The notes under the pieces: generated by a model | The model's input: the letters and a program-made list of their open reading frames with translations, nothing else | What the model was told of the DNA's origin: nothing | The model's database searches: none | Assembly (NCBI GenBank): GCA_019775845.1 | Contig: JADQAV010000007.1 | Span: forward strand, 682,390 to 746,389 | Origin: Myrmaecium sp. VS I D KN 1 | Taxonomy: Eukaryota; Ascomycota; Dothideomycetes; Valsariales; Valsariaceae | Reading direction: 5' to 3' | Length of the DNA stretch: 64,000 bases | Made by a program: the position numbers and the translations under genes | Shown: in pieces, positions 28,164-48,029 of the stretch | Position numbering within the stretch: position 1 is the stretch's first letter | Layout: the number at the start of each line of letters is the position of its first letter

Positions 28164-31100
28164 GTAATGGTAGGGTTTATGGTGGTGGTGGTTCTTTTTC
28201 TTGTGCGGTGCTTTGGGTTGATGTGTCCTTACTGATATTGGTGATAATTTGCTGTTTGGAGGTGTTTTCTACTTTGGTTTATCAATTTATTATAGTGGAA
28301 AGGTAGCTTAGTTGGTTCTGGATAGAATATATCTTCACTCCTTTGCCTTATCGCTTACAAGGCTTTTCCAAACAAAAAGCCCAAAAAACATAAATAGCGT
28401 CTCTTACCACGTAACGATCACCATCCTACCCTATTGGTTTCCCCCTCATACGCGCGCGTCAACTGTGGCGGAGCCCTCCCCGATCAGGCAGCCCCCCCCC
28501 CTGGGCAGGGCAGGGGGGCGTGGCTTGACCAGGGAGGGCTACTCTATTTGTCTCGCCTGTGCCTCAGCACTTGGGGGCCCTAGACTAGTTGGATTGGGCG
28601 ACCTGGGTAGTCTATTTGGACGTCAGCTCAACCGGCCTGCGACGGGGAACAGCCCTTATGCTGCTTTGGGATATATTTAGCGTGGAAAGATAGCAGTTTG
28701 GTATGTGAGGGTCCTTTGACTATGTCCTGCATCTCATCTCATCCGTTGTACCTCACAAGAGTTCAAAATTTGCCTCGTCGCTAGGCTCGGACTTCTACAA
28801 CCCTTGGGCAAAGCGTGATGCATCGCGACGCTCGTCATGCAGAAGAGTAACAATCCGTATCAAGAGCCAGGATTTGAGGGTTTCGGGGGCCCGGGCCAAT
28901 CCATCCTTCCCTAGAATTGTTTCATGCCTGGTCTAGAAGCATTAGAATCCCCTGCGATCGCCTGAAAGATGGATTTGTATGTGACTTCTGATCAAGACGT
29001 CTTCTAGGATTGCAAACTCTACTTAGCGTGCGTTATTAACGTTTGTGTCCAAAGCAAGCCTTGTATTGCGAAGTGTAAGGGAGGTTAGACAAGTAGCCTA
29101 CCTCTAAGAGAATGTATCTCAGTGAACTTGTTGTAAATACCTAGCTACGTTACCCAAGACGCGTCCACATCAACCTGAGCATCTTATCCCTTTACGTACC
29201 ACTCTTTCAGCGTGCATCACCTAGATCCGCAGTAGATCGACCGACAGCGGGGATGTTGCGAAAGGGTATGACTGAAAGATGAGAATTTCCGGGAACAGAG
29301 ATAACAGGCTGGCTGGCCGCGTCTTGCGTTGATCCCTATTCGAGAGTGAAACATCCATTGTATATCTCAAAAGCGGGTGAAGGGGTTCGATAAGGGGGAG
29401 GACGTGTTTCGATAGGATACCGCAGGTGATTTTGAAACCCACAGAACGGTCAAGCGTGTGAAAATTGTACGATAGGACGATGGAAATAGTCAGGAGGTTA
29501 GCTGAGATAAGTCTTGAACTCGGTGATTAAGGGGATTAAGAGGATAACAGACCATTAGCTATCTTAGAAGAAAGTTCACATCGGATGCAGCCGACTTCGC
29601 GACCTTTCCGCTATGCGGAAAGTACGGTGTATTGGCTCAGTCGGGGTAAAAGACAGTACATATAGAATATAAAAGAGAGTTAGAGAGATTAAAGCCAAGC
29701 TGTCTAGACAAAAGCAAAGCAGCTCGAGATAGAAAGTTTATATCGATAGGTCATCGCGAAAAAAAAAAAAAAAAGAGAACATTCTATCTTCCGTTTTACA
29801 CCATACGATTTACAGGGCACATCCATTACATGGAAGATATGTGTAAGAGGGCTCTCACCCCTTTTTACCGGGAATGCAGAGCAGACGTAGCAAGAGCAAA
29901 GGGCAAAGACTCCTGCTTATCATCTGCGATGGAAGAATCGAACAGAACACCGGGAGGATTGCGGTCTGCTATTCTATGAAGCATAAGATTTGAGACCCGA
30001 ATGGGAAGAGAAAACAAACCCTAGCAAGAACGTGCGATACGAGAGTTTGGAGATACAGCAAACGAGCTGTGCAATGACTGTGATCTGGAAGATGACGCTG
30101 CGGCAATTTATTGATCGGAAGACAACGAAACAGAATGGAAACCAATTCAGTTTTTGTGATTGCCTTAGGCGTCTAAAGAGGCAGGTGGGGCGGACCAGAA
30201 CGAGAAGAGATAAGGCTTGGTGATGGTCCCCATTTAAGATCGACGAAAAAGAATACGTGTGCTGTATTGGATTCGCGAAACGATAGTCGCAAACCATTGG
30301 AGCGGAGGAGGACAAACATCAGTGTAAACGCGAGAAGGCGCTGCGCATGAGGTTCTGGGAAATGATCGTATTGACTCCAAGAATTCTAGAGTAACATGAA
30401 AGTCCCGAGGACGATGGATGACGCGGCACTGTGTCTGAACTGCTGAGGTAAGTCCGAGCGAAGACTCCTACTCGTCGACACGAAGGTTTTGGATTCCGAG
30501 CAGTTTGTTTGACGAGCCGGCTGTTGGCTCTTTGGGTGTTTAGTCCAGCCTTGTGCCTGGGCTAGTGATTGGATTTCGAAGATTTCTATGGCATCAAGTG
30601 ATGTCTTCCCAAACACCGCTTCTCGAGCTGCTATTGGTCGGAGGGCTTCCCGTATCCAAGCATGGCCCCTGCACGTACTGGAATCATGGAAAACCGTCGC
30701 ACAAGGCTTCAGAAATGCAAGTGAACCTTGAAGATAAGCGCCTAATGGAAGCAGAAACTGAAGAAGGATGTCCATTGAAACGTCGATAGAGTAGTCGATA
30801 TGCAGTCATGATATCTTTCGGTGGAGCGACCCGGAACGCGAATGAAACGGTGAGAGATGACAATGCAGATTCCGGCATGAACTTAGGACTGGCAATTGAT
30901 GAAGGAGGATTTAATACCTCGCTGGTGACCGCATCCGCGAATTACATCTGGCCGGCTCAGTCGATCTTCGACTGCGTCAGACCAGTCAGAGACCGCCACG
31001 TGGATGCAGCTGGACTTTGACTGACCCTCCCGCCACACGCCTGATATGTACTTTGGGCTCCCCTCTGGTAACGTCAACGGAAAGGCAGTAGCAAAAAAGC

Positions 31101-32184
31101 AACCTCCTCTTGATACCGGACTGAAAGCACATTGCTGACACCAGAACAGGACCGAAGATACCACAACCAAGACGGCTCACTCAAACCATATCACGATCGA
31201 TGAACGGAAAGAACGGTTTTTTCTTGAGGATTTGACAACGATAGAGGATGAAGACGAGATGACAGTGGAGAGGGAAGACCACAGGGTCGATGAAAACGGA
31301 CCTACCTGTTGAGGCTGCTCAGCCAGCTTCCAGGATCTCGACGAGGCGAACAACTCGACAGTCGTGATAAAGCAGGCGGTACCTTGATGCTCAAGATATC
31401 ATGCCGTGGCTTGCATTGCGGTCGGGATACTGCGACGGACGGTGTGGACAGCTCGCCAACCCTCTCACAGACAGGTCGGCAGCAGGGGCGAGGTCGCGAT
31501 GGCGGTTCGGGAGGGGCGTTGCGGGGAGAGGCGGAGATGTCCGCTAGCGCCCGATGGTCACGTGGCAGAGTGGATCGCTTACTTCGACCTCCCGTCTACC
31601 TTACCCCTCAGCTCTCCCTCACCACCTCGTCCGGTGTCCTCGCACGTCGACCATGGATCGTCGCAGTATGCGATACAATGTCGCAGGTCTTGTCGCTGTG
31701 ATACTCTGTGCGGCCTCATCATAGGTCATGGCGTCCTGGCAGCATTTGTCCAGGCGAACCCCGGAGGAGCAGATGGAAGCGCTGGGTCCTTCGGAGCGTT
31801 CTATTCCGGCTATGCGACCCGCACGGATTGGATAACCTGCCAACCCGGTTGTCGGCCTCAGCGGCTACATAATCAACTGCCCCGGAGAACCAATCATTGA
31901 AAAAGAATGGAATTCATTTCATCATACGGTCGGTAACATGAACGCCGGAAGCAAAAAGGAACAGAACAGCGAAGGTATGAGCTGCCGCCGAACTTTCCCG
32001 GAACCCCCCTCATCCTCCTCTCCCTTCTCACTTCTCCGTCAACGCTCTTTCCTTGCATCAACCCCTTCTTTCTTCCTGCAAAGCGACTGGATGAATCGCT
32101 CGCCATGAAGGAAAGTCACTGTACATGAAACAAAACCGCCACCCGAAACCGGCGATCCTTTGTCCTCCCGCTTCTGTTCGCCGC
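28164..32184. other. Gene-sparse accessory region with low-complexity and A-rich tracts
   Basis: Four kilobases without a supportable gene. A C/G-rich patch with a poly-C run is at 28,490-28,520. Between 29,000 and 29,800 the sequence is A/T-rich and ends in a 15-A run at about 29,760-29,775, which could be the tail of an old retroelement; nothing else supports that. Several frames of 100-165 codons between 30,386 and 31,900 lack family resemblance. Confidence 0.4.
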
Positions 32185-32523
32185 TCAGTGTCCGAAGCCC
32201 TGAAGGCGCTTGTTCCTTTCGCAACTGAGCTCGTATATCTCCAAATCGAGGCTGCGAATCAGTTCCATGGACTTCTCGATCGAAGCCTTGAACTTGCTAC
32301 CCTCCCGCTGCCATCGGTTGACGCGTTCCACCTCCGCTGCTTTGCGTCGCATCTTGGTGTCGATCTTCTCGCACAGCTTACACTTCTGGCCTACTGGCAC
32401 CGTCGTCATGATCAATTTCATGCCGCAGGTTTCACCGATCCGGTATTCCTTGTTGCAGTGTTGACGGAAATGACCCCACTTCCAGTCACCACAGACGAAA
32501 CGGTGCTGATCGAAGAAACACAT
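32185..32523 (-). CDS. Small conserved fungal cysteine-rich protein of unknown function, 112 aa
   Basis: A single exon starting MCFFDQHRFVCGDWKWGHFR. Cysteines at 2, 11, 23, 33, 48 and 51 plus His22 give a possible metal-binding head (HRFVCGDW, RQHCNKEYRIGETC, QKCKLCEK). The second half is a basic, then helical segment (KIDTKMRRKAAEVERVNRW and onward), probably a coiled coil. I recognise it as a family common in filamentous ascomycetes that usually begins MCF(F/Y)DQ and has no assigned function. Its length fits those relatives. It is the only well-supported gene between 28.2 and 37.7 kb. No signal peptide, so probably intracellular. Confidence 0.75.
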   Translation of the reverse strand: MCFFDQHRFVCGDWKWGHFRQHCNKEYRIGETCGMKLIMTTVPVGQKCKLCEKIDTKMRRKAAEVERVNRWQREGSKFKASIEKSMELIRSLDLEIYELSCERNKRLQGFGH

Positions 32524-35500
32524 GATTGTTGCTTGGCAATGCTAGCGCAACCATCAGTATCAGCCTTATGGGATCTTACTGTTGACGACTGGATGTCCTC
32601 GACTTTGTCAACATACCTTTGATTGCTTGGCTGGATCGATTGGAGCGGGAGACCTGAACGAAACGATCGACCGTGGAGCTTCAGCAGGACCGTGAAGGAG
32701 TTCTCCTCAGTTGACAGTACACCACCGCGTGTGAGAAGTAGTCGTGGACAGGCTAAGGGTCGCGTGTTGACAAGCCAGGTACTTCGGCTGTTTGAAAAGA
32801 AGGTTCCGGGCGAATTGAGACTCGGTTTGAATGGAGGACTGGAGATGACTGCTGCTTGCTTGAGGCAATGGAGAGACATTGACGGGCCTCGAGACGGCTA
32901 TTTATGTCAAAGCAAGACTCAGGGATATCACTCTCTCGCCACGGACTCATTATCTTCTTCGGACACGGCGGCCATCTTTCGACCCTCCATCGGCACGAGG
33001 TTATCGTAACCCCACTCCATTTGGTCCAACTATATTGCCACGATCACACGGATCACTCCTCAATGCCGCTAGGGAACCCATGGCCGTTGGCTGCGATGAC
33101 ACCTTCGACTGTGCCGACGGCCCCAATGATGCAGAGTTATCGCATCCGCTAGGGATCACCGGACGTCGTGGCTTCTTTTCCCGCGTATTCCTCCCTGTTG
33201 GAAGAAAATCCCTCATCTCCCCTGTTCTGTTCGCGTGACGGCAGAGATTGAGAGGTTGAGATGCTTTGTTTCGGGGTTTCATCATCATCATCCTGTCTCT
33301 GGTGGTGCTGGAGATATTCAGCCCAATACTGGTCACGTGCTTTTCTTGATATGCCGGGGCCATGGACGGCCTTCATTGATTGGCCTTCCCTTCCCATTGA
33401 TTGGATAATGGGCTCTCTCACGTTGTGTTGAACAATCGCTTCGGAGCTTGGGCGGACGCTGCGACGTTTGCCTACGGAAGTGTCACCTTCCTTTCGACCT
33501 CCAGTCTCAATCAAGTCCCGGCCATCTGAGAGAAGCATTGGCCATCATTGCTCGAAGCTGTCATTGCGACTCCACCTGTCGCCGCTTCCCACTTCCCTCC
33601 GTCGTGCTGACCTTCCGCCCCATCAAGTTCAATTCCAGCACATACGGCTAAGTTAGGGTCAGATTTCTTGTGGATCTCCGCTAATCAACGTGTTCCAAAG
33701 GTCCCCCTGTCCAACTTCATTCGAAGCCTGGCTCGGCCGCCCCTCACATGGCTTCTACCGTATTACCTGGCTGACACGGCGTTTGCATCTCTTAGGCTAG
33801 CACCCTGACTGCATGCTCGGCTGGTTATCACCCCTTCGGCATGTCAGTCTTTGAAAAGGTTGCCCAAGGGTACCATGCCATGAACCGGCAGTGTGGTGCG
33901 CCGCGCGAGCCTGCGTAGAATGCCATGGGGATGCCGTGCTCTAATCACTCAGCTGATCAACTGTTCCCTTCCATGGCTTGGGCGGTCGGCGTCCAGCCTA
34001 CTGTTGCATCGTTTAGTTCATGCAGGCTGACAGGCTTCTTACCCTAGATAACGACGCTGGCGTGAAAGCGTATGCAATACTCACTCCGTCAATGCATATC
34101 GAATCAATCATATGAGTTCTGGACGACGCTAGAATTGTCCGGAGCATGCCCCATCGGAGATCACTGACGTGGCGAACGGGGTTTGGTTGAGAGTTTCTGA
34201 TGAGCCTGATTTTCTGTGGAAATCCTCGATCCTCGCAACCTTCTCATGGGCATGGTACAGGGCTATTTTGCTTCTCATTCCGCCTCACTGTTTGGGAAAT
34301 ACGCCCCCCTCGCCCCCGCTAAGATCAACCGAATTCCCTCCTCTCCCCAAAAATCCACCATTCATGGAGTAGACAGACCTGCATATCTGTGGCGAAGATC
34401 CGATGGCCATCAGCAATTCTTCACCGGTTACCCCGCGAGCCATACCGTTTCCTGACAGTGAGTGATCCCTCTTGACGTCTTCATGGCGGGACTCTTGCAG
34501 ATTTCAGTTCGTTCCGCTGTTGCCGACCCCCTTTTGCCTGATCTGCTTCGAGAGAAGGCAAACCTTGCACATCCTTCATTCTTTGTCCATACTACGAACT
34601 GTCCAGTCGCCTATCACGGCTATTGCTGTTTAATCCTGAGTACACCTCGACGGAAGAGTTTGACCATTCACTTGGTCTTGTCTCTTTGGATGAAGGGGTT
34701 GACTGCTCGCATCAGAAATTTTTGCATGCAGTCGTCTTCAGAGTCCCAACTATCTGATGTGCGTGCGCACGGCCCCTCGTGCATTCGGCGCAGGACACAC
34801 TCCAAAACATCACCAGCTGTTTAGGGCGGAAGTTTATGTAGCTGTTTAGATTGCAATGGAGCCTCGCGTCGTCCGGCAGTTTTGGTGCTTTGCGTGCAGT
34901 TAATTTTTGGACTATAGACCGGCCTCTACATTGCCGGGCTTTAACACCGCCGCCGAAGAAAACAACGGGCGACGTTGAGTTTTACTACATGCAGCTGCGC
35001 GTTCAGTCAGGGCTCGAATTCAGTCATGTGAATGGCCGTCGATGCTGGGTGGCGCCGCGGGAACGTAGAGTCGCGGGAACCCACACGATCAGCCAGTCTC
35101 CTGCTGTTCCGTCCATGCCCTTCACTCCCCACTCTGTCCGGCCACGCCTCGTACAAGAACGAGCCAGTAGGAGGGCAGCACTTCTGGACGGCCAACAGCG
35201 TGCGCCCAATCTTGTGCGACGAGACGGCCAGGCGGGGGCCACCTTGCCTGTTCCTTTGGCTTTCGCTTTTCGCTTTCGCTCCACAACTCAGCGCCTGCAT
35301 TGGTAGGTACTCCCACAGGCCTTTCTTCAGCGCTGGAGCAAAGGCGGATCAAGTTGAGCGCGCATTGCATGAGGGGTAGGGCAAGCCTGGGATTGACCGA
35401 ATGTGAAAGGTCGACTGAGCGGGTCCAATCGAGCCGCGACGCTTCTTGCCCAGGGGGGGAGGGACGAATGATGGCGTGGCGATTTTTCGCCTACGGTGGG

Positions 35501-37694
35501 AATGGGTCTCGCAATTCTTCTGGTCCTGATCTGTGACTTTTCGTCCTTCTCTCCTTGCCGTCCCCCAAACGCATTCGCGTCGCATGAATCGGTATGCACC
35601 AGGTTTATGCAGCTTGAGGTAGTTGCAGCTGCGGGCGCGCATGGGCTTCAGAGGCCCGGATTGGTGGATTGGGCTGCCGGATGTTTGTTGTGCTGTGGTG
35701 GAGGGGCTGAAGCGTGGTACTGTGATGGATCGAGCCGGACAAGAACCGTGACCTCTTCCAGCAACCGTCCTATAGCTCGGACGTGTCCGCCGGGAATATG
35801 TGATTAAATCACAATTGAGGCAGGCCCTACCTACGTATAGGGAGCTTCGAGTCCTCCAGCGGAGGTCCAGCCGTCTTCTTCCTTGGGCCAAATCCCGAAA
35901 AGCGGACACGCCGGAAAATGCCCCGTCAGACTAAAATGACCTCCGCCTCCTCCGCCTTTCACCGTCAAACTTCAGTGGACTTGGAGAACGCGTACTAGAC
36001 TTGTCGAAATCACGGGAGGATGAAGGAAAATCAGGCGGTTCTTATGGATAGTGACATGTCAGACACAGACTGGTACTTACGTACCTTGATTGCGTACAGA
36101 AAGTTGAGGACTGTACGCTGGATTCATTATAGGCCGCGTGTCAGTAACCAGCTTCCGCTAACCCAGAATTTCCTTTGGAGGTGAGTTACACACCCTTCTC
36201 CCCCATTCGTGCCCCTGGTCGGCTCGTGGGAGTTGGCAATAGGGCCGATGTACTCCGTGCTCCATACGAGCATGCGTGACATTGCGTTGGGACAGTGGCC
36301 CATCAAAACGCCAAGAAGAACTGGAGAAGGTAGCGCCAGGCCCCATCTTTCACGGCTATTCTTCGAGAACAATGTCCCGAGAGAGCGGTGAAGGGATTGA
36401 CCTCGGCCACTGCTAGCGCGCTGCTTGGGGAGGTTTCGGCGCCCGTTTTTTTCCCCATCTGCACAGAGCTCTTGCGCAATCCGCGGGTGGCCCATGTTGA
36501 AGCCGCTTCCGGTGCTCGGAGCAAGCTTTGTTCCGGGAAACGAGCGAAAGCAGGCTACGAGAGGCAGTTGCGTAGAGTTGAGCGGAAGAGGGAGGAAGTG
36601 AGCGATAACAGTTCACCGGCGGCGATTTTCTTGGCGCGAGAATTCTGTCTGAGACACTGTGGTGCGAAAGCTTGTCGTCAGGGCGTCTAAGAAAGCGCTG
36701 AGCTGCAGTTGATCGGTAGCTTGGCCGCCTGCTCTTGAGGCCACATCCCAGCTATTTGTGATTCCAAACGGTTGAGAATTGACGTTCAATAGCGATGATC
36801 GTAGGAAACATAACTCCAAAGATGACGGTTGATCTCGTGGCCCGTAGTAGAATCTCCTAAGACAATTGGCTGACTAACGGTGGAAACGAAGTTTTGAAAG
36901 TCTGAAGAGTATAGCAGAAGTGAAGGGGAAGATGTTCTTGTGTAGTCGCACAAACTTTTGTGTCTCACCTGGACCACCCAGGTGTCAATACTCAGGGGCC
37001 CCCAGGCTTCTGCTTCGTCTTTTCTTTGGCCTGACTCGAAGCCTCATAAGCGCCTCGTTGAGCTTATGCGGAAGCCAGCATAAGTCTTCCTGGCCAGTCT
37101 CTCGTCAAGGATTCCTTTGTAGTTCGCTTGGTCGAGCGTTGGGGTGGTGATCATGTAGGCGGTAAGGCGCGAGCCATGAGTCTTTCCCTGGCCGTGCCGT
37201 CGTGCCGTCGTAGCGCTTGTGCTCACTGACAAACACGCCCTGTGAATCACACGGAGTGGACGTGGGATGGGAGGCGAAGGTGATCCAACAGCGAGTGTGG
37301 TGAGAAAACGATGGGCGGCGGTCGTACAAAGGATGTGGTGAAGTTTCTTCTGGTTCGCCGTAGCATGGACGGATGCAGTTGCCCGCAAATACCAAATGTG
37401 CAGTCAGGGTAGGGGGTGGGCGTCGCCTCTTCTCATCAGCGTAATTGCTACTACATAGACACACAAACACTGGAAAAAAAGCCCCAATGAGTTTGATACT
37501 AAGGTCGTACCGACGCGAATTATAATTTGGTAAGTTCATACCTTAAAACAACTTGAATATCACTAATCAGAAAGCCCGAGGCGGAAATAAGGCAACAATG
37601 GATTTGTATATATCGAGAAGATTCAAAGAAAGCACCAAGGAAGCCCTCCGACGGCGGAATATACTAAGATGGACTGAGCAACTTGCGAGGAGGC
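32524..37694. other. Gene-sparse accessory region
   Basis: Over 5 kb with no supportable gene. Frames of 100-190 codons occur on both strands (for example 33,149-33,538 minus, hydrophilic; 37,105-37,539 minus with a hydrophobic start), but none has a recognisable domain. No transposase, reverse transcriptase or terminal repeats could be identified. Confidence 0.4.
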
Positions 37695-39278
37695 TCAGGA
37701 CTGCCATCCCTTCTCACGGAGTCTACTGTTCCTCTCTGTCCACTCATCGATGCGTTTCCTCTCTGGTCCATCAGCTATCATGCTGGCGGTACCATACACC
37801 TTGGTAGAGTCGATCTCCCAGGACTCATCCGCTGCTTCGACCATCGAAATATCATCCGGTCCGCACGTCGTTCCATCCGGCAGAATCACCTGCCGCCGCC
37901 ACGCTTCGATGCGCCCGTCTTTTGCCGACGCGATCCATCGCTGCTCTCCGCTGAGCCTATAGCCATCGTCGGGATGGTCGGGGAAATGGCAATCTTGGAA
38001 ATAATCTGCCTCTAGTCCCGCCTCTTTCGCCTCCATCGTGGCAGCGTTGACAGCTTCATCCGCTTTCCGCCATTGCGTGGTAGCGTCCATCTGCCTCCGG
38101 AGGAACATAGGATCGAATTCGGCCTTGAAGTCGACATTTGGTCGGTTTACTTGGGCCTTGACGTACTCTTGAAGCTCTCGGCCGTAGTTCTGCTGGAGTG
38201 ACTCGAAAGCTTCCTCCGCACGTCGCTGCTCAACCAGTGCCTCTTCAAGTCGACGTTGGGCGATCGTTTGCCTTGCGTCCCGTTGCTCGGCTCCGTCGTC
38301 TTGATTGTGCGCATCCGCCGCGGCAGTCTCAAATTGTGGGTAGAAGGAGGCTGTGCTCTCTGGGCCGCCGTTGGTGGCATCCTCATTGTCCTTTTGGTTG
38401 TCGTGTGCATAAGGCTGATAGCCCTCAAGGCTTCCGTCGCCATACTCCGTCCAACGACCTTGGCCTGTCTGAACATGAGTCTCGGAGGGACCACTTGCCT
38501 GGCCGTTTCCGGATGGATGCCGGGAGCCTGTGGCCAAGCCAGGGTCTTGGACCCCCTGCCACGGTGGGAGAAGGCAGCACGCCTCGAAGACATCGTGCAT
38601 TATCCGGTCCACGGCAAATTGGAGCTCTCCCTGAACCCACCTCTTGTGATTGAGCTCAGAGATCAATCCTTGCTCTCGTTCAGCAAGCTCTGCACACTCA
38701 GCTTCGTAGGCTGCAATCACATCCCGAAGCCCTGCGATTCTATCCAGATCCGCTTCGGAAAGCGACCGATACTCTCCGTTATCAGACACCTCGATGTCCT
38801 CGATCTCCATCTTTGCTTGGATTATCATTCCTCTCCGTCGCTCAATCTCGCGGTCGAGCCTCCTACGTTGGTAGTCCACGTCCGCTTGTACCTGAAGCAG
38901 TTCTCGGTTGTGCATGAGCGCCTTTTGGATGTTCTCGGAGAGTTCCCAGGACAGCATGAGAGCCACGCATTTCCTGCCGTCTTCGTCATATACTCCTACC
39001 ATTTTGGCCGGACCCCTCGTGTAATCGGTTTCATCCTGGCCGTCGAAGTAGTAGGTTTTATTTGTCTGTGGACGAACGCATTCCGCCTCGGACGTCGTGG
39101 CCACCGGAGCTTCTGTACTCCGCGGTATGGGTGAAGGGGAAGCCCGGGTGACATCTATCACATCGACGTACGGAGGCCGACCCGCTGTCGCAAGCAACTG
39201 GGCCAACAGGGCATAGCTTCGTGCGAAGCCCTGCTGGATCCTGTTCATGGCGTCGGATTCTGATATGGGGGTACACAT
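37695..39278 (-). CDS. Coiled-coil protein of unknown function, 527 aa, partner of the divergent DUF6590 gene
   Basis: One long exon. The start chosen is the ATG at 39278 (MCTPISESDAMNRIQQGF); the ATG at 39248 is the alternative if an intron with donor GTACGG and acceptor CAG lies in the leader. Visible parts: an N-terminal segment with KTYYFDGQDETDY; a long charged helix roughly at 110-230 (YQRRRLDREIERRRGMIIQ); a polar Gln/Gly/Ser linker; a second helix roughly at 340-385 (RRLEEALVEQRRAEEAF); then VNRPNVDFKAEFDPMFLRRQ; and a C-terminal domain with ILPDGTTCGPDD. No signal peptide or membrane segment. I do not recognise the family. It is transcribed away from the DUF6590 gene, and a decayed relative of its C-terminal half occurs at 41.3-41.6 kb in the same arrangement. 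Confidence 0.75.
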   Translation of the reverse strand: MCTPISESDAMNRIQQGFARSYALLAQLLATAGRPPYVDVIDVTRASPSPIPRSTEAPVATTSEAECVRPQTNKTYYFDGQDETDYTRGPAKMVGVYDEDGRKCVALMLSWELSENIQKALMHNRELLQVQADVDYQRRRLDREIERRRGMIIQAKMEIEDIEVSDNGEYRSLSEADLDRIAGLRDVIAAYEAECAELAEREQGLISELNHKRWVQGELQFAVDRIMHDVFEACCLLPPWQGVQDPGLATGSRHPSGNGQASGPSETHVQTGQGRWTEYGDGSLEGYQPYAHDNQKDNEDATNGGPESTASFYPQFETAAADAHNQDDGAEQRDARQTIAQRRLEEALVEQRRAEEAFESLQQNYGRELQEYVKAQVNRPNVDFKAEFDPMFLRRQMDATTQWRKADEAVNAATMEAKEAGLEADYFQDCHFPDHPDDGYRLSGEQRWIASAKDGRIEAWRRQVILPDGTTCGPDDISMVEAADESWEIDSTKVYGTASMIADGPERKRIDEWTERNSRLREKGWQS

Positions 39279-39800
39279 TAGTGGAAGGGTCGTTGGTTTG
39301 ACTTGAAACCGTACCAAGTATGGAGTGTTCTAACAACGGCAGTAAGCTCAGGTGCGTGCGGTGTGAGAGTGGTTGAGGTTTCGTTACTACTTTGGAGGTG
39401 GTTGAAGAGGGTATGGAGGCAAGGTACACGGCGCTGACGCTTTATCTAGGATTTGGCGGAATCGAATTTCTTTGTTACATCCGACCGTAACTCAACAATG
39501 GTACCCTTCAGGATGCCATCCCACCGCTTCCTGAAAGCCGGCTTTGTTTGCTTTTGTGAATTATAGAGAAAGAGAGTGTGAAAGGTGCAAACAAAGTCCT
39601 TCACCGAGTTACGCCACGTGGTAGGCCGACAAAGAATATTAACATAGTCACTTACCTCGATCTCTATACTCGATGTTTTATAAATATAAATCTCAGTACA
39701 ATCCTCACCAAGAAGATGTCAAAACCTTTCCATCGATTCCGTTGTGCACAATTTTGCACTGTTCAATGTTCTGTCAATTTTGCTTTTTGTTCTAACAAAT
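39279..39800. promoter_or_regulatory. Shared divergent promoter of the coiled-coil/DUF6590 pair
   Basis: 522 bp between the two start codons. It is more A/T-rich than the genes around it, especially 39,640-39,800. The arrangement suggests joint expression; no specific factor site is called. Confidence 0.4.
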
Positions 39801-40665
39801 ATGCCTGAAGGTGAGTGGGTTCCAAACCTCAATTTAGCAGACGCATTACTTACCTGTTTGGATAGCCTCACGTACCCCTATGGGCGGACGTAGACATTTT
39901 GGTCCTCAAAATACCGATCATAGCAACCGTAACCTCCCAGATCGATGGGAGCCGTACCCCAAGTACGTGTCTCCTTCCCAAGCCAAGCGAGGTTCTATAT
40001 ATGGGTATAGCAACTATGGCCCTTCGGTGGCAATGGCCGGAGTGAGCCACTATGGGTTCAAGGACCCCAGCAGGGCTGGCGTTGGATATATGCCATCTGC
40101 GATGGGCAGTGCTATCACAGTCCAGCGATACCACAGACTACCCCGTCGTCTCTTGCGCTCGGAAATCAAACCCGGAATGGTCATCTGGAGCGCCCATTTC
40201 GCCAGCCTGAACAACCAGAACGTCCCAGGGACAGACAAGACTCGTGTTGAGACCCATCTTGGCCCTTGCTCCGTCAAGGGTCGGTACATGGTGGTCTTGC
40301 AAGTCTTCCATGGCAACCTGATAGCCATTCCGGCATACACGTTCGGGGGCCAGGGAATTATCAATAAGCCGCCCTTCAAACGCCATGAGTATATCGGATT
40401 CAAGAATGCCGATAACCAGGACTTTGTCAACGACTGTCCCTATCCTCCAATCGAATGCACGAACCTCCATGGATGGGCTGGTCCATCCCCCAAGTGCGTC
40501 CTGAACCTGGCGGAGACCGTCACCATCAACTACACGTTTTCCTCGACGGTTATCAAAGGTAACGTAACAAAACAAAGCTACAAGACACTGGTCGAATTGT
40601 ATGTACATCTCATTCAGGGCGAGGTCGAGGGAGGGAAGGAGGCGAAGGATATCGGGAAGCCTTAA
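39801..40665 (+). CDS. DUF6590-domain protein, 269 aa, one intron
   Basis: A 10-base first exon (39801-39810) joins exon 2 (39866-40665) over a 55-bp intron with donor GTGAGT and acceptor TAG. It gives MPEASRTPMGGRRHFGPQN in frame. If that exon is not used, the ATG at 39880 gives 261 aa. The core, SEIKPGMVIWSAHF, then VETHLGPCSVKGRYMVVLQV and IPAYTFGGQGI, then HEYIGFKN, is the pattern of the fungal DUF6590 domain (a small beta-rich fold of unknown function). There is no signal peptide. DUF6590 genes are expanded in some Pezizomycotina accessory regions; no biochemical role is known to me. It pairs head-to-head with the coiled-coil gene. Confidence 0.8.
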
Positions 40666-41329
40666 GCAGTAGACGTATACGGCCGTCGATGGAGTAAAAT
40701 AAGACGGAGAATCATACATAATCATTACTTATTGTTTAAAGTATCTCGGCAGTTGCTTTGTATTGTGTATGGTTTTGCTCTGGGGTTTATATCGCGTCAC
40801 GTAGTGGGCTCTGTGGAATCATCTTCCCCGAGATTTCACCTCCGCAATTGGAGTCAGCAGCAGTAGAATCAAATATATGCTATGCCTCTCCTTCGCCAAT
40901 AGAGACCTCCGACTCCTGGATGCTGCTTTATGTATTGGAGGATATGGTCGCAATGAGCGATTGATTCTGGACCAACTCCATTGAGAGGGCGTGCGGAGGG
41001 TATCTATATCATCTCGCCATGGATATATTCATTATCTCCCCGGCTCTGGATTCAGAATACTCCACGACTCAAACGGTTAACTGGAGGTCACATCCATTCA
41101 TCCACTTTCAAATCGACTAGTTGATCTTGCTTTCCATGGACCACGACTTCGATAACCACCTAAGAAGAGGAAGGAGAGGAGGCTGAGTGAGTTCAACCAC
41201 CTTCCATCTAGTTCGCCGGAGGAATCGAATGATACGGAATGATTGCAGAGAAACCTTGCCGTCCTGGGGATCACCTGCAAAGTCCCGTCACCGGAACATA
41301 TCATTTGGAAGTTAGACCGCCTGAGCCAT
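40666..41329. other. Spacer between the intact pair and its decayed copy
   Basis: No intact frame. On the minus strand, 41,098-41,329 may hold further eroded C-terminal coding sequence of the decayed coiled-coil copy, but similarity is too weak to call. Confidence 0.35.
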
Positions 41330-41620
41330 GTGCCACGTGGCCTTGAAATCTTCATCGGCGTCGCGCTATCAACTGGCGGCGATCATCTCTTTCTTCAGGG
41401 GAATGACATTTGACTCCACACAGAAGTCGGCGTTCGGCCAGTTAATCTGCATGGCCTCGCACACTTGGGAATCGCTTTAATTATGGGCGTCGAGGTCGCA
41501 AACCGCCTGCTCGGCCAGGATACCGGCTTTCTCCTTATGGTAGTATTCCTGGTAGGCATCGTAAATCTTAAGAGGTTCTGTAATTACGCAATTAGCATCA
41601 TTCAGTGATTTACTAATCAT
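41330..41620 (-). pseudogene. Decayed paralogue fragment of the coiled-coil gene
   Basis: Reading the minus strand gives YDAYQEYYHKEKAGILAEQ and later EAMQINWPNADFCVE and PLKKEMIAAS, interrupted by three stop codons. This lines up in order with KAQVNRPNVDFKAEFDPMFLRRQMDATT of the intact coiled-coil protein. No start and no full-length frame remain. It lies head-to-head with the decayed DUF6590-like gene, mirroring the intact pair 2-3 kb to the left. Similarity was judged by eye, so homology is likely but not proven. Confidence 0.5.
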
Positions 41621-41736
41621 CTCGCAGCCGTTATGTGTTTACCACATGATCTGCGTCGTACGCGAAGACCGTTCGATCGGGTGGAGGAATGATTTGGCAG
41701 TGACAAAGCCGTTCTCCAATACCTACTCGATTTGCT

Positions 41737-42491
41737 ATGGCAACTCACAATGTCGAGTTTTCCCCATTCCAAAAGTCTGATTCAAGCTCCGAGGCAGCTA
41801 AAGATTACGCACAGTTATTAATATCCAGAGTGTCCAAACTGCCAGCTCTTGACCTAACAAAGGCTGTGGACACGGTCTTACGTCACACCAACAGTGGAGA
41901 AAAAATGTTCAGTCTAATAAGAGTGGCCTTCAGCGTCCACGACAGACATTCCTTCCAGGTATCCCCACAAGAACGTCAATATTGTCTCGCGGATCAGAAA
42001 AGGGAACAAACATCAGCCCCCTCAGCGCCTGCTACCGGCCGCCCGACTCCGAAGAAATCTCAAGCGACGTTAACTGGAGTTCTGCGAGGCGATAATCATT
42101 ATAATCTCGGCACGCTCGTCTACAGCTGCCGCGTAGTGCCCTTGAAGGACTCGGCTACAGTCGTTAGGACACAGCTGGGCAGTTACATCTACAGGGGCCG
42201 GCCCACGGTTACAACCCCGATGTATCACGGCCTCGTGGTGGCAGCCCCAGTGTACAGCCAAGAAGACCAGGGCCTGGAGAAGAACCACTGATTAAACACT
42301 ATGAGTCCCTCTGGATACGCAAGCAGAATAACGTCGCATGGGTAAATTTTTCGCACAATGAACTACTTGAAGCCATCAATAGGACAAGTAAGAAGGCCGC
42401 GTGGCGTTCACACGCCGAGGGGTTATGCTTAGACATAGCCATGAAGGTAATAGAAGGCCTTCAGGCACAGACAGCAAAAGAATGCGTATGA
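41737..42491 (+). pseudogene. DUF6590-like paralogue, frameshifted
   Basis: An intact frame runs 41737-42291 (184 codons: MATHNVEFSPFQKSDSSSEA). It then stops, while another frame continues without a break to 42491 as EEPLIKHYESLWIRKQNN and onward. The join is near 42,270. Segments YNLGTLVYSC, VVRTQLGSYIYRGRPTV and HGLVVAAPVYSQEDQG fall in the same order as GMVIWSAHF, VETHLGPCSVKGRYMVV and HGNLIAIPAYTFGGQG of the intact DUF6590 protein. The N-terminal 90 residues (ALDLTKAVDTVLRHTNSGEK) have no match in the intact copy. A truncated protein could still be made from 41737-42291. The frameshift and the ruined partner next door favour a pseudogene. Confidence 0.5.
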
Positions 42492-43712
42492 GAGCAAAGA
42501 AGAATCGCCGACGTTCCCAAAGGCCAAGAAAGCGAGCTAGCTGAATAGGCAGCTTGCAAAACTTAGTTAGGTTAGGAGACTGCAACAGCTTCGCAAGCTT
42601 AGAAAAGGCGTTAGGAGCTATGACATCTCGCAGCAACCGCACTCCATGAATACCTAACATCTCCAACTACCTTCTCGCACTTTCCGCGCACCAGCGGCTA
42701 AGCTAGAGTTGTCGTTTATCAGACGAGTCGCCAGAAGCGTCTCGCGAAGTAGCATTACTGTTCCCTACGAGTCCCGGGCTACTGACGCTTTCTATGACCC
42801 TTTAAGTTTATCATAGTCTCTGCGGCTTCCTTCAACTCACAAGTGACCTGTGCCTCCGATTTTCTCATGGGAAGTATGCTTCTGGATGACGCATACCATG
42901 GAGAGGCATAGCATATGTATGTTGTGTGGGGCTTTGGATGGGTATATCTGAGTGAGCATTCGTTTATCTTATAGGTATCAAGTACTCCGGCTTGCAATTA
43001 ATCAATTTGACGGTACTCTGTCAGGCCTTATTTTTATTTCCCTTTGGTTGTATGTATGTGGAGACAATGTTGTCATGTAAGATATGTGGAAAGATACGGG
43101 TCGGGTATTCTCGATAGACATGAGGTTGGGGGAGATGATGTACGTTGACACGTATGATATTATACACTGCCGTAGGTGTATAAAGGTGTATATATACCCT
43201 TATTTGTATTCGAAGCTGCTTCTAAGTGGCAAGCTGAAGCTGAGTAACATCATTAGATACTATTCTCATCAGTTCGTTACACCGCTTGCCTATAGTATGT
43301 CAACTTCATACACCACCCGGAAAGAACATTTTCCTTTCAGTGATACGAGCTCTATACTCAATCACAGCACAATCCTTTCTCGGGGAAAGCAAACAATCGA
43401 AGAATAAACAGAGGAGTGATAGCGACAGTAGTATTAGGAACCACAACAAGTATAGGAATCCCTAAAGGGCTCTAGTATAAGTGGGTACCTACGAGAGCTT
43501 GATGTCTTCTACGTAAGAAGCTGAGCGGCAGCGCTGTACCATAGCAGGCGGAAACGGCGGGAAAATGAACGATAATGATATGTACTCTAGAAGGTAAAGA
43601 AGAAGTGAACTCGAGCTCTACGGTATATACAGATCCCATCCACACCCATCCACTCTTTCTCCTCGCTCCTCTAGTAGAGAAATCCCAAGAAAAAAGCAAA
43701 GCCCCAACAACC
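42492..43712. other. Intergenic, no gene seen
   Basis: A/T-rich sequence to the right of the decayed DUF6590-like gene, running to the stop of the OPT transporter gene. Only short frames are present and no repeat or RNA gene was recognised. Confidence 0.4.
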
Positions 43713-46097
43713 TCACGCCGAATCCAACGCAAAACACCGCTCCACACTCACATCGCTCCGATTGCCCCACCACACCGGCATCGTGACCACCTTGCCACTA
43801 CTAAACGCCACAAAAATCAACAGCATATTAATATTAAACGCCGCATCCGCCGCCGCCGCCACCAAAAAATTATACCGCCGCCAAACGTCAAACCGCCTGC
43901 GGTAAAAGTAATACATGCAGACCCACGCGACGAGGAAGCGGCTCGTGTACCCCGTGCTCAGGTTGCCGTAGAACTGCGACATGCCCGCGGCGAAGATGGT
44001 CACGTTCCAGAGGTGAAAGTGGAGACGGCTGCGGGGGAAGGCGCGGTGGAGGGCGTAGATGACGCAGGGGGCGGCGGCGCCGAAGAGGAAGCCGTAGAGG
44101 ATGGGGTGGTAGGGGCCGGCGAAGAGGCGCTGGGGTCCCAGCAGCACGTACTGCACGGCCATGGTGTTGTAGGAGACGAGCTGCTGGCCTGTCCATTGGC
44201 CGAGCGGGTCGGCGACGAGGCCGAGGAGGTAGTCGCGCTTGGACCGGATCACCCAGCGGATGATGCCGTAGTTGATGGGGATGCCGATGAGCTCGCCGAA
44301 GAGCTGGGAGAAGAAGACGGCGCGGGGCGGGAGGTGCATGTAGTGGCCGATCTTCTGGTCTTGGAGCATGTACTGCGCCCGGTACCAGACGTCGCCGGCG
44401 ATGCTGCCGTACGTCGACGCGCCCGCCGGGTGCTTGTGCCCGGCCACCGCGTTGATCATGTAGCCGTACATCAGCTCGTTGAAGGAGCCGATGGCGACTT
44501 GGAAGTTGGAGAGCGCGTACAGGTAGCCCATCGGGATGATGCAGGCCGCCCCCGTCAGCAGCGCGATGATGTATGTCCAGATGGGGATGAAGAAGAGGCC
44601 CTTGGCCAGGATGATGAGGATGGTGAGGAAGGAGGCCACGAACAGGACGACGTACCACCAGACCGGGACCTCGGGGTAGGCCCGCATGAGCACGTTCAGT
44701 CGGTCGGTGTACTGCCGCGAGATGCTTTCGCCGCCATTGGTGGTGAAGCGTTTGTATATTTTATGGGCGGTCGCTCGGATCTTACCGTGGCCAAACAGTG
44801 CGATCCAGGTGAAGGCGGAGATGTACGAGGCGTAGTCGAAGAAGAGACCCCATGCCAGCTGCGTGCCCATGTAGGCCGGGCCGTATTCCTTCAGCGCCGT
44901 CTCGTTCAGGCGAAGATCCGGCGTCATGAGCGCGGTGACGGGGTATTCGGTGCCGTTGGCGAGGAAGAGGTCGTTGGACATCAAGCCGTACTTGAACGTG
45001 CCCAAGCTGCCCCACTTGGCCGCGGGGATCAGGATCCAAGAGTTGAAGACGTATGCGGCGAAGAGCACGGCACTGGTCCAGAATGGCATGATCATGGGGT
45101 TCCCCAGGTTCTCCGAGATGGTGGACCAGTCGAGAGAGAGGTTAAGCACGCCCATGCCGCCGATGCCGGCACCGACGAAGTTGGCCACCGCGTTGTGAGG
45201 AGCCACCCAGCAGAGGAAGGAGAGCGAGCTGACGAAGGGAAAGACGTATTCCGGAAGAAATTGCCACAGCGTAACGCCCACGAGGATGATGAAGAAGACA
45301 CGCTTCTGTTTACGAGCAGTCCGCGAGTTGTCCGCGCTCTTCCTCAGGGTCTCGAACAGCGACGTCTGCATCAGGGCTTGCGGCCAGAGGAAGTCGGGGT
45401 CATAAAGTATGAACTGGCGAGCCATCGCAGCCAGAGAGTAGCCCAAGAAGACGATGGCGAACATGAAGAAGATGCACGCGGCCGGGTGAATCGGATCGTT
45501 GTAGTACAGCTCGGCCAGGGCGATTGGCGTCCAGGCTGCGTTCGAGGTGGCGCCGCTGGACGCAGAGATGGTGACCATGACGTGCTCCTTCACGCTCCAG
45601 GGCCCGGGGTTGAGGCTGAATATCCAGCGTGTGAACGGCACCCGGATCTCCCACGCGGGCAGGACGGCGGCGAGCCACTTGCCCAGATAGTGTGTCATCA
45701 CTTGCACGAAGAGGACCGAGTATGGCGAGGAGGTTGTGCGGAACTGGCCCATTTGGTACAGGAAGGCCCCTGGGGCTATGAGGACGATAGAGAGGAGGAA
45801 GTAGCGGAAGGTGATGACGGGCATGTTGGGATCGTCCTCGAGACTGACCGTCTTCCTCACCTGCAGCGGGAGTTCGGCAACGTCGGGGTCGAGATCCTCC
45901 TCCCTGGTGGCATCGTCCGAGTCGGAGGAGTGAATGCCCACCTCGGGGTCGGTTTTACTCTTTGTCCCAAAGGCATCGCGCTGCGCCGGTTTCTCAGCAG
46001 ATACGGGGCCGTCGACCTCCACGTTCGTCGGTTGTGAATCCGCAACGCTTTCCGATCCGGCAGGCTTGCGGGCATAGCGGTTGAACAATGAAGCCAT
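43713..46097 (-). CDS. Oligopeptide transporter, OPT family, 794 aa
   Basis: A single long exon. The start chosen is the ATG at 46097 (MASLFNRYARKP); an in-frame ATG at 46160 would add 21 residues with no family resemblance. A soluble acidic N-terminus of about 90 residues is followed by some 14-16 hydrophobic segments. The OPT signature SLNPGPWSVKEHV is at about 161-173, near the usual NPGPF-KEH motif. A HLPPRAVFF stretch stands where K(I/L)PPR is found in the family. VSSLSFLCWVAPHN, GWTS-like TSAVLF and GHGKIR motifs also fit. Family members import small peptides, glutathione or metal-chelate peptides into the cell by proton symport across the plasma membrane. The C-terminus is polar and ends VERCFALDSA. 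Substrate cannot be told from sequence. Confidence 0.9.
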   Translation of the reverse strand: MASLFNRYARKPAGSESVADSQPTNVEVDGPVSAEKPAQRDAFGTKSKTDPEVGIHSSDSDDATREEDLDPDVAELPLQVRKTVSLEDDPNMPVITFRYFLLSIVLIAPGAFLYQMGQFRTTSSPYSVLFVQVMTHYLGKWLAAVLPAWEIRVPFTRWIFSLNPGPWSVKEHVMVTISASSGATSNAAWTPIALAELYYNDPIHPAACIFFMFAIVFLGYSLAAMARQFILYDPDFLWPQALMQTSLFETLRKSADNSRTARKQKRVFFIILVGVTLWQFLPEYVFPFVSSLSFLCWVAPHNAVANFVGAGIGGMGVLNLSLDWSTISENLGNPMIMPFWTSAVLFAAYVFNSWILIPAAKWGSLGTFKYGLMSNDLFLANGTEYPVTALMTPDLRLNETALKEYGPAYMGTQLAWGLFFDYASYISAFTWIALFGHGKIRATAHKIYKRFTTNGGESISRQYTDRLNVLMRAYPEVPVWWYVVLFVASFLTILIILAKGLFFIPIWTYIIALLTGAACIIPMGYLYALSNFQVAIGSFNELMYGYMINAVAGHKHPAGASTYGSIAGDVWYRAQYMLQDQKIGHYMHLPPRAVFFSQLFGELIGIPINYGIIRWVIRSKRDYLLGLVADPLGQWTGQQLVSYNTMAVQYVLLGPQRLFAGPYHPILYGFLFGAAAPCVIYALHRAFPRSRLHFHLWNVTIFAAGMSQFYGNLSTGYTSRFLVAWVCMYYFYRRRFDVWRRYNFLVAAAADAAFNINMLLIFVAFSSGKVVTMPVWWGNRSDVSVERCFALDSA

Positions 46098-48029
46098 CGT
46101 GCGGGGAAGACGGGTGATCCGATGGGGGGCCAAGGCGGTTAGGGGTGAAGATAAAGGCAAAGAGGACAGGCGGTCGTACAGACCATATCAGTGTAGAGCG
46201 TTAAACCAATCTTCCTACACCAAGGAGCAGAGGAGAAAGAGGCGGTCATCCGCGCTCTTATGAGCTCTTTGAATCCATCCCACCACACCCGCACCCCCGC
46301 CACAACGTCGTATCGTAACAGTGCAAGAAGTTGCATCGATCCTCCTTCTCCTCATCCTTTTCTTCTTTTTCACCTTGCCACTTGGTGTGAGGGGATGCCG
46401 CAAGATAAAGCGGCGATCGCGCAATCGGATGTGCTATTCCCCCTCCGTCCTGACGGCCGCGGCCGTGCCCCTCCCCTAACGACCTTCCGCATCCCGCATA
46501 GGCCCGTTCGCTTCCCCGAGCCCGCGATTCCCACCGCGCCAGGGATTTATCGTGGCTGCATGGTGGTGGTGGTGGTGATGATGTGGGGGATGGAAGCTTG
46601 TTCCGACAATCCACCCTGATTTCGTAGAACGAGCACCTTGCATTGTGGCCGGTGTGGAGGAGAGGTGAAGCGTGCAAGGGGTGCTGTGGCAACTGCTCCC
46701 GCTAGTCTTTCCTTTGACAGAGTCTTGCACTGAAGTACCAATGTACATATCGAGCCATGCTATCAGACCGTTTCCCGCCGCTTTTTATGATCCATGGAGT
46801 TCGGTAGTTCGGTAGATCGGCTCGGTCGGTTCACAAGCGAGTCTCCCCGACACTGCTCGGAGGAAGGATCCACGCACGAAGGAATTCTGGAACATAGGAG
46901 TTCTGGCACATATGTACACATGGATTCAATGCGCAAATACCCAGACATCTTGCGCCATCGGATAGGTAGCATTATCTGAGGAGTCAGGGGTACGAGGTGA
47001 TGGGTGGCAGTGTATCCTCTTGCTACTACAGACAGTTATATTCGCAAGTATAGTCCTGGGCCATGAGTTCGAACAGTCGTAGGTACAGTAGTATACTTGC
47101 TCAAAAACGCGCCTACACAATGAGCTTTTGGAATACCGAATAAACGCAGGTCTCATACGTTACACCCGTAATCCTCGCTCCCGACGCTTCCAACAACCAA
47201 ACATACCGCGACCATTGCTTACCTAGCATGATATACCGGCTGTTTATTCATTTCAGCCAGCGCAATCCTTTTATAATCAGAATCAGAAGAAGAAGATATC
47301 TATGAAACCGCCAGATAAAGTAGTTTAGACAGACATCCTCCAAATGAAAAATATATCTAACTGCATCTCTATATAACCTCGCGTTCGTCTGCATTAGTAC
47401 TACGACATCTCCGCTTAGTCTTCGCAGAACTATCTGAGAGTGTAATCCCGCTAAGTGTACGAAGCAGGCTGCAGCCTGGTATCAGATACAGGTTTATATT
47501 CTATGGATCACTCCACGACATACGTATACTACACGCGCAGGGGTTAGACCTCCACTTATAAGTATTATGGAAAGTAACTCTAATTACTATCTTTCTTATT
47601 CTTTCCCTTCTAATCTCTTATAGTAATGAAAAAACGAACCTCTACCTGGAAAAGCAGTATGCTAACCTCGACACGCTAGAATACGATATTATTATATATC
47701 TTTCTGGGGTAAGAAGAAAGACTAATCGATTAAGAGTGGGAACGCGGAACAGCTGCTCTGAAGAGAAAAGAAGGAAAGAACTAAGAATGACGAGGAAGGC
47801 CACGAGGGCGGAAGCATAAGAATAAAGAGCCTGTACTCGACTTTAGCGAAGAAAATATAGCTATAAAAAACAGCGGAAAGCTATAATCACGCTCTTTCCT
47901 TATGGTAAAACCTTCTTAAGCTGCCAGATAGATATATATAAACGCATCAGGCACCGCTTGATGCTGCAGCAGCATATCAGATTTCCCAAACAGCCAGTTG
48001 ACATCTCGTAACACTCCCAAACCACCCCA
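46098..48029. other. OPT promoter side and A/T-rich block
   Basis: 46,098-47,000 is upstream sequence of the OPT gene with CT-rich and (GGT)n stretches (46,559-46,577). 47,100-47,980 is markedly A/T- and TpA-rich compared with its surroundings and has no intact frame. It may be eroded repeat DNA, but no element family could be named. Confidence 0.4.

What the first reader, a model, noticed from the sequence alone, without database searches (positions are those of the whole stretch)
37695..42491. Divergent coiled-coil/DUF6590 two-gene module, present twice, second copy decayed
Seen: a minus-strand coiled-coil gene and a plus-strand DUF6590 gene share a 522-bp start-to-start region. About 2 kb to the right, a minus-strand fragment (PNADF, LKKEM) resembles the coiled-coil protein and a plus-strand gene (GTLVYS, RTQLG, RGRPTV, AAPVYS) resembles DUF6590, again head-to-head. 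Known: DUF6590 has no assigned function. Inference: the two genes form a co-inherited unit that duplicates as a pair in accessory DNA, where one copy is under loss. Paired birth and death of two linked genes is what one would expect of partners in recognition or self/non-self systems, though nothing here proves that role.
Basis: partly seen in the sequence, partly recalled or inferred. Interest (0 to 1): 0.75.

Follow-up and report, generated by a model that had tools for sequence, protein, structure and literature searches.

The report
Duplicated fungal two-gene pair, one decayed
A fungal chromosome carries a back-to-back pair of uncharacterised genes that was copied as a pair, and the second copy has decayed; the only other clear gene of one of the two types found in this genome also sits back-to-back with a similar-looking partner, which hints that the two proteins work together, though this has not been tested.

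Summary
An intact coiled-coil gene (-) and an intact DUF6590-type gene (+) are head-to-head at 37.7-40.7 kb. To the right lie a stop-ridden coil fragment (-) and a DUF6590-like frame (+), same order and orientation. Each matches its counterpart in the intact pair beyond all 1000 shuffles and does not clearly match the genome's other pair: an old tandem duplication of both genes. When the second copy died is not resolved. New here: the only other DUF6590 gene found in the 25.7-Mb genome (contig C49) is also head-to-head with a coil-rich gene of 517 residues. So 2 of 2 Pfam-detected DUF6590 loci, and the decayed copy, share the arrangement. Homology of the C49 coil gene with the window's is unresolved. 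No fungal genome collection was available, so conservation across species was not tested. Best reading: a co-selected two-gene unit whose proteins act together; plain bystander duplication is nearly as likely. A self/non-self role is possible but unsupported. No paper in the searched library holds the words DUF6590 or PF20233.

The parts
37695..39278 (-). Intact coiled-coil gene, 517 or 527 aa (start 39248 or 39278), single open frame; coil-like stretches at residues 97-205, 320-362 and 381-419, numbered from the M at 39248
   Evidence: Open frame; coil heuristic of my own; no Pfam family at E<=1
39279..39800 (.). Region between the two starts, 522 bp, probably a shared divergent promoter region (inferred)
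   Evidence: no k-mers shared with the C49 intergenic region beyond shuffles
39801..40665 (+). Intact DUF6590-type gene, 269 aa; exon 1 39801-39810, intron 39811-39865, exon 2 39866-40665 (intron is my reading, no transcript)
   Evidence: Pfam PF20233 E 1.9e-5, borderline to the curated cut-off
41255..41512 (-). Decayed copy of part of the coil gene (matches about residues 344-430 of the intact one), 5 stops in 86 codons, no gap
   Evidence: 0 of 1000 shuffles; 0 of 1000
41704..42291 (+). DUF6590-like copy: 195-codon open frame, matching block 42157-42276; ends early relative to the intact gene
   Evidence: 0 of 1000; 0 of 2000; no Pfam DUF6590 hit; not linked to the intact gene by the genome searches
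42168..42491 (+). Open frame that may continue the DUF6590-like copy in a shifted frame (unproven)
   Evidence: Best match falls at the expected place but 777 of 2000 shuffles are as good
40870..40891 (+). Left arm of an inverted repeat (17 nt exact within 22 nt) that brackets the decayed pair
   Evidence: relation to the pair unproven
42900..42921 (-). Right arm of the same inverted repeat

Best explanation
A two-gene unit: a long coiled-coil protein and a DUF6590-type protein, transcribed divergently from a region of about 0.5 kb so that both can be made together. SHOWN: the pair exists; both genes were duplicated in tandem in the same order and orientation; the second coil copy is dead; the genome's other DUF6590 gene is also head-to-head with a coil-rich gene. 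INFERRED: linkage is kept because the two products act together. The most likely way is that the coil protein oligomerises and serves as scaffold or holder of the DUF6590 protein, whose folded domain carries the activity, so that a matched pair is inherited together.
For: Both halves of the second copy match their own counterparts beyond 1000 of 1000 shuffles, in the expected order and orientation. They match the local pair rather than the C49 pair: DUF 71 (0 of 2000 shuffles as good) against 40 (86 of 2000); coil 96 (0 of 1000) against 27 (688 of 1000). The only other DUF6590 gene found is head-to-head with a coil-rich ORF, 632 bp between starts. In a small sample 2 of 30 ORFs of at least 200 aa were coil-rich, and they are these two partners.
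Against: Co-duplication of neighbours needs no functional link. Homology of the two coil genes is not established: the local score of 67 is reached by 3 to 13 of 1000 block shuffles, the global scores by 30 to 108 of 1000, and the C49 coil scores 66 with another coil-rich ORF that I take to be unrelated. The window coil did not find the C49 coil at E<=1, nor the C49 coil the window coil at E<=10. The regions between starts share nothing beyond shuffles. The coil count is a small sample scored with my own heuristic; with the left-out L017 it is 3 of 32. The codon pattern does not show that the second copy was long kept as a protein: a copy dead from birth fits as well. No usable fold; no species comparison.
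Confidence: 0.45

Rival explanations
1. Bystander duplication: two unrelated neighbours were copied by one tandem segmental duplication, and the C49 arrangement is a coincidence. No joint function.
For: Tandem duplications carry neighbours regardless of function. The coil genes at the two loci are not shown to be homologous. Only two independent loci exist in this genome. A second copy that was dead from birth fits the codon-position counts (2dlogL 1.2).
Against: Coil-rich ORFs were rare in the sample: 2 of 30, both partners of DUF6590 (3 of 32 with L017). Both pairs are head-to-head with 0.5-0.6 kb between starts.
Confidence: 0.4
2. A recognition, incompatibility or toxin/neutraliser pair, in which one protein is harmful and the other controls it, with gain and loss of matched pairs.
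For: Paired duplication and decay; divergent adjacent genes as in het-S/nwd2 (passages of PMC3321046). Gain and loss is described for fungal gasdermins, which lie in two-gene clusters (section 15 of PMC10197012).
Against: No NLR, HET, gasdermin or protease family in the proteins scanned; no PADLOC hit; no segment shared by partners (83 of 1000 and 525 of 1000 shuffles as good). The coil copy has 5 stops in 86 codons while the DUF-like frame is open over 195 codons; if this tells the order of loss, the coil broke first, which speaks against the coil being an essential neutraliser.
Confidence: 0.12
3. The resemblance of the second pair is chance.
For: Identity is low (33% for the coil part, 15 of 40 in the DUF block), and genome searches with either DUF frame listed only the query itself.
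Against: 0 of 1000 shuffles for each half, same order and orientation; the only other place listed for the coil in the genome at E<=1.
Confidence: 0.02

Closest known systems
DUF6590 (Pfam PF20233)
   Same: The C49 gene is a clear member (153.9 bits); the window gene matches almost the whole profile (11-151 of 152) at the edge of the cut-off
   Different: The window gene is divergent and borderline; the second copy has no Pfam hit. Pfam calls the family one of unknown function
het-S/nwd2 (HET-S with a STAND receptor)
   Same: Two adjacent, divergently transcribed fungal genes, one of which can be inactive (nwd2 in het-s strains; PMC3321046 passages)
   Different: No STAND/NLR domain in the coil proteins and no shared motif between partners found
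Fungal gasdermin with protease, two-gene clusters
   Same: A linked pair; gain and loss of copies (PMC10197012 section 15)
   Different: No gasdermin or protease family was matched by these proteins

Membership tests
DUF6590 (PF20233) | Score at or above the curated cut-off of 27 bits | tested here: inconclusive
   Window gene: 25.1, 26.9, 27 six-frame, over profile positions 11-151 of 152. C49 gene: 153.9, met. Second copy: no hit
het-S/nwd2-type amyloid pair | Adjacent genes | tested here: met
het-S/nwd2-type amyloid pair | One partner is a STAND/NLR protein | tested here: not met
   No Pfam family at E<=1 for the window coil; only weak hits to other families for the C49 coil
het-S/nwd2-type amyloid pair | Short motif shared by the two partners | tested here: not met
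   Local score of coil against DUF reached by 83 of 1000 (window) and 525 of 1000 (C49) shuffles; a crude test that can miss a short motif, and the C49 DUF given lacked its second exon
Gasdermin/protease pair | Gasdermin and protease domains | tested here: not met
   No such hit
Toxin-antitoxin of the PemK/MazF barrel type (considered from recalled motif likeness only) | Profile match to a toxin family | tested here: not met
   No such hit in Pfam or PADLOC at E<=10; the filters drop most weak matches
Toxin-antitoxin of the PemK/MazF barrel type (considered from recalled motif likeness only) | SH3-like barrel fold | tested here: inconclusive
   Both models had mean pLDDT about 30, too poor for a fold search; none was run

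The most novel reading that the evidence does not exclude
DUF6590 and its coiled-coil neighbour form a so far undescribed fungal two-component system in which a DUF6590 effector is held or triggered by a matched coiled-coil partner, and matched pairs are gained and lost as units, as in conflict or recognition systems.
Probability: 0.12. Interest if true: 0.8.

Novelty: new variant of a known kind. Interest (0 to 1): 0.42.

Why it matters
DUF6590 is a family of unknown function, and no paper in the searched library holds its name or Pfam number. A repeatedly linked partner would give the family a testable lead: look for the coil gene next door, test binding, remove both genes. If the linkage holds across fungi, it would add a two-gene unit to known ones such as HET-S/NWD2 and gasdermin/protease.

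Tried and rejected
Structure: two AlphaFold jobs on the window's DUF6590 protein, alone and with the second copy as only other row, gave mean pLDDT 30.5 and 30.3. No fold search was run.

Relatives: none in viral contigs for either type of gene, none in genome contigs for DUF6590; in the PDB by sequence 0 for the window gene and one weak match (E 0.65) to the acidic tail of the C49 gene. These collections are not fungal genome collections, so this says nothing about fungi.

Loss after long use, withdrawn: identity of the dead coil by codon position is 44/51/31 of 86, which I first read as long maintenance before loss. A check shows that a copy dead from birth, facing a live copy frozen at positions 1 and 2, fits too (2dlogL 1.2, t 0.7, about 181 substitutions in 258 nt). 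The lack of any gap in 86 codons speaks against so long a neutral drift, the five stops for it; the stretch was also chosen by a search that favours gap-free matches. I leave the time of death open, and for this I lowered the best explanation from 0.5 to 0.45 and raised the bystander rival from 0.35 to 0.4.

Mobile element: the decayed pair is bracketed by an inverted repeat, 17 nt exact. With up to 2 mismatches its 18-nt form has 4 places in the genome: these two and two with 2 mismatches (the reversed control pattern had 1). In the window, at up to 3 mismatches, there are 2 matches, 0.10 expected, and 1 of 100 shuffles had at least 2. A strict alignment score of 34 exceeds the best of 500 shuffles (32); a looser one (18) does not (best 29). 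No transposase was found among the ORFs that I scanned, so I do not claim an element.

RIP: 1-kb bins 41001 and 42001, which hold the decayed copy, do not meet both index limits that I recall for RIP; bins 39001 and 43001 do. The substitutions in the dead coil show no excess of C-to-T or G-to-A.

Coil search artefact: the C49 coil hit on C7 (E 7e-5) is a proline-rich stretch. That region (L017) was left out of the 30-ORF sample because a coil search had brought it in; with its 2 ORFs the count is 3 of 32. Three L020 ORFs that begin in or near the overlap with the window were also skipped (none coil-rich).

Homology of the two coil genes: local, global and motif tests. The motifs DFxAxFxxM and [EQ]RW..I..W, in the same order in both, were picked after looking at both sequences: a lead, not a test. 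My memory that both look like one widespread fungal family, and that DUF6590 resembles PemK/MazF barrels, comes from no call.

Literature: DUF6590 and PF20233 gave 0 papers each; one search gave 0; some searches gave listings (12, 12, 1 and 1 papers), of which I read passages of PMC3321046 and passages and section 15 of PMC10197012; the rest I saw as listings only.
Full report
WHAT IS THERE. The window lies in a genome of 25.66 Mb in 66 contigs (window = C57:682390-746389), fungal by its genes (a fungal Zn2-Cys6 domain and a fungal potassium channel among others). At 37695-39329 (-) there is one long open frame for a coil-rich protein, with possible starts at 39278 or 39248. At 39801-40665 (+) there is a DUF6590-type gene, which I read as a 10-nt first exon, a 55-nt intron and a second exon to the stop. 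DUF6590 matches profile positions 11-151 of 152, but at the edge of the curated cut-off: 25.1, 26.9 and 27 bits against 27, depending on how much is given.

THE SECOND COPY. The coil protein has one other listed place in the genome at E<=1: 41255-41512 (-), E 0.0019, 86 codons without a gap, about 33% identity, five stops. In 1000 dinucleotide shuffles of 41000-42800 the best score was 30.0 against 37.7 for the real sequence; for DUF6590 it was 27.3 against 31.6. Among 95 tiles of the rest of the window the DUF score was reached only by the two that hold the copy itself (next best 20.8); for the coil the best tile scored 25.0, no tile holding the whole coil fragment. The copy has the same order and orientation as the intact pair, as in a direct tandem duplication.

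Against this stand weaker results. Genome searches with the decayed DUF-like frame (E<=1) and with the intact DUF frame (E<=10) each listed only the query itself, and the 1.8-kb DNA found only itself. The decayed DUF-like frame has no Pfam DUF6590 hit. The DUF half therefore rests on the direct comparison and on its place beside the coil fragment.

The copy is local. Its DUF part scores 71 with the window gene (0 of 2000 shuffles as good) and 40 with the C49 gene (86 of 2000). Its coil part scores 96 with the window coil (0 of 1000) and 27 with the C49 coil (688 of 1000). At the DNA level the flanks, the intergenic region and the DUF gene show no similarity above shuffles, while the coil part does (27 against a best of 24 in 200), so the duplication is old. 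The rest of the coil gene could not be traced in the copy.

HOW IT DECAYED. Over the 86 aligned coil codons identity by codon position is 44, 51 and 31 (about 25, 26 and 23 expected from composition); over 40 aligned DUF codons it is 25, 20 and 17 (about 11, 10 and 11 expected). This looks like divergence under protein-level selection, but it does not date the loss: a copy dead from birth facing a conserved live copy fits as well. The DUF-like frame is open over 195 codons but ends early, and the frame that might continue it (42168-42491) does not match significantly (777 of 2000 shuffles as good).

A THIRD INSTANCE. The family search finds DUF6590 at two loci only, the window and C49:46666-47147 (three matches, two of them exons of one gene; the count is a lower bound by the tool's own words). 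The C49 gene is a clear member (153.9 bits). In its surroundings (L008) the DUF6590 gene begins at L008:5481 (-) by my gene model, and a coil-rich frame with a start at L008:6114 (+) faces away from it, with 632 bp between the starts. So 2 of 2 Pfam-detected DUF6590 loci, and the decayed copy as a third, are head-to-head with a coil-type gene. With a simple heptad heuristic of my own, 2 of 30 non-overlapping ORFs of at least 200 aa were coil-rich, and they are these two partners (ORFs from the window, L008, L020, L032 and L033; with the left-out L017 it is 3 of 32).

WHAT REMAINS OPEN. The two coil proteins are both 517 aa from their likely starts, each with a first coil-like stretch of about 110 residues, a proline-bearing linker, further coil-like stretches and two short motifs in the same order, picked after the fact. 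The sequence similarity is not decisive: a local score of 67 is equalled by 3 to 13 of 1000 block shuffles, global scores by 30 to 108 of 1000, and the C49 coil scores 66 with another coil-rich ORF. Neither coil found the other in genome searches. I call the two coil genes alike in architecture, with homology unproven. The regions between the starts share no k-mers beyond shuffles.

MECHANISM. Most likely the two proteins act together: divergent transcription makes both at once, the coil protein oligomerises and holds or positions the DUF6590 protein, and linkage keeps matched versions together. Co-duplication and the repeated arrangement are shown; the physical partnership is inferred. The main rival, almost as likely, is plain bystander duplication plus one coincidence on C49. 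A recognition or toxin/neutraliser role would fit the gain and loss described for fungal gasdermins in two-gene clusters (section 15 of PMC10197012) and the divergent het-S/nwd2 pair (passages of PMC3321046), but none of the defining domains was found, and no motif shared by the partners.

LIMITS. Structure prediction gave unusable models. Gene models are mine, without transcripts.

Noticed in passing
window 40870-40891 and 42900-42921: Inverted repeat, 17 nt exact, bracketing the decayed pair about 360-410 bp out on each side; elsewhere in the genome only two places with 2 mismatches were found. Possibly the trace of an insertion.
   Followed up: partly
window 58470-60275 (-): Long frame matching Pfam NAD-GH (E 5.6e-99). 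I recall this family as made of frames antisense to other genes, so it may not be a real gene.
   Followed up: no
window 28164-37694: About 9.5 kb without any open frame of 200 aa or more, next to the intact pair.
   Followed up: no
L008:4412-4612 (-): The C49 DUF6590 gene ends in a long run of aspartate and glutamate, absent from the window gene.
   Followed up: no
window 43716-46187 (-): OPT oligopeptide transporter (E 9e-147), right-hand neighbour of the decayed pair.
   Followed up: no
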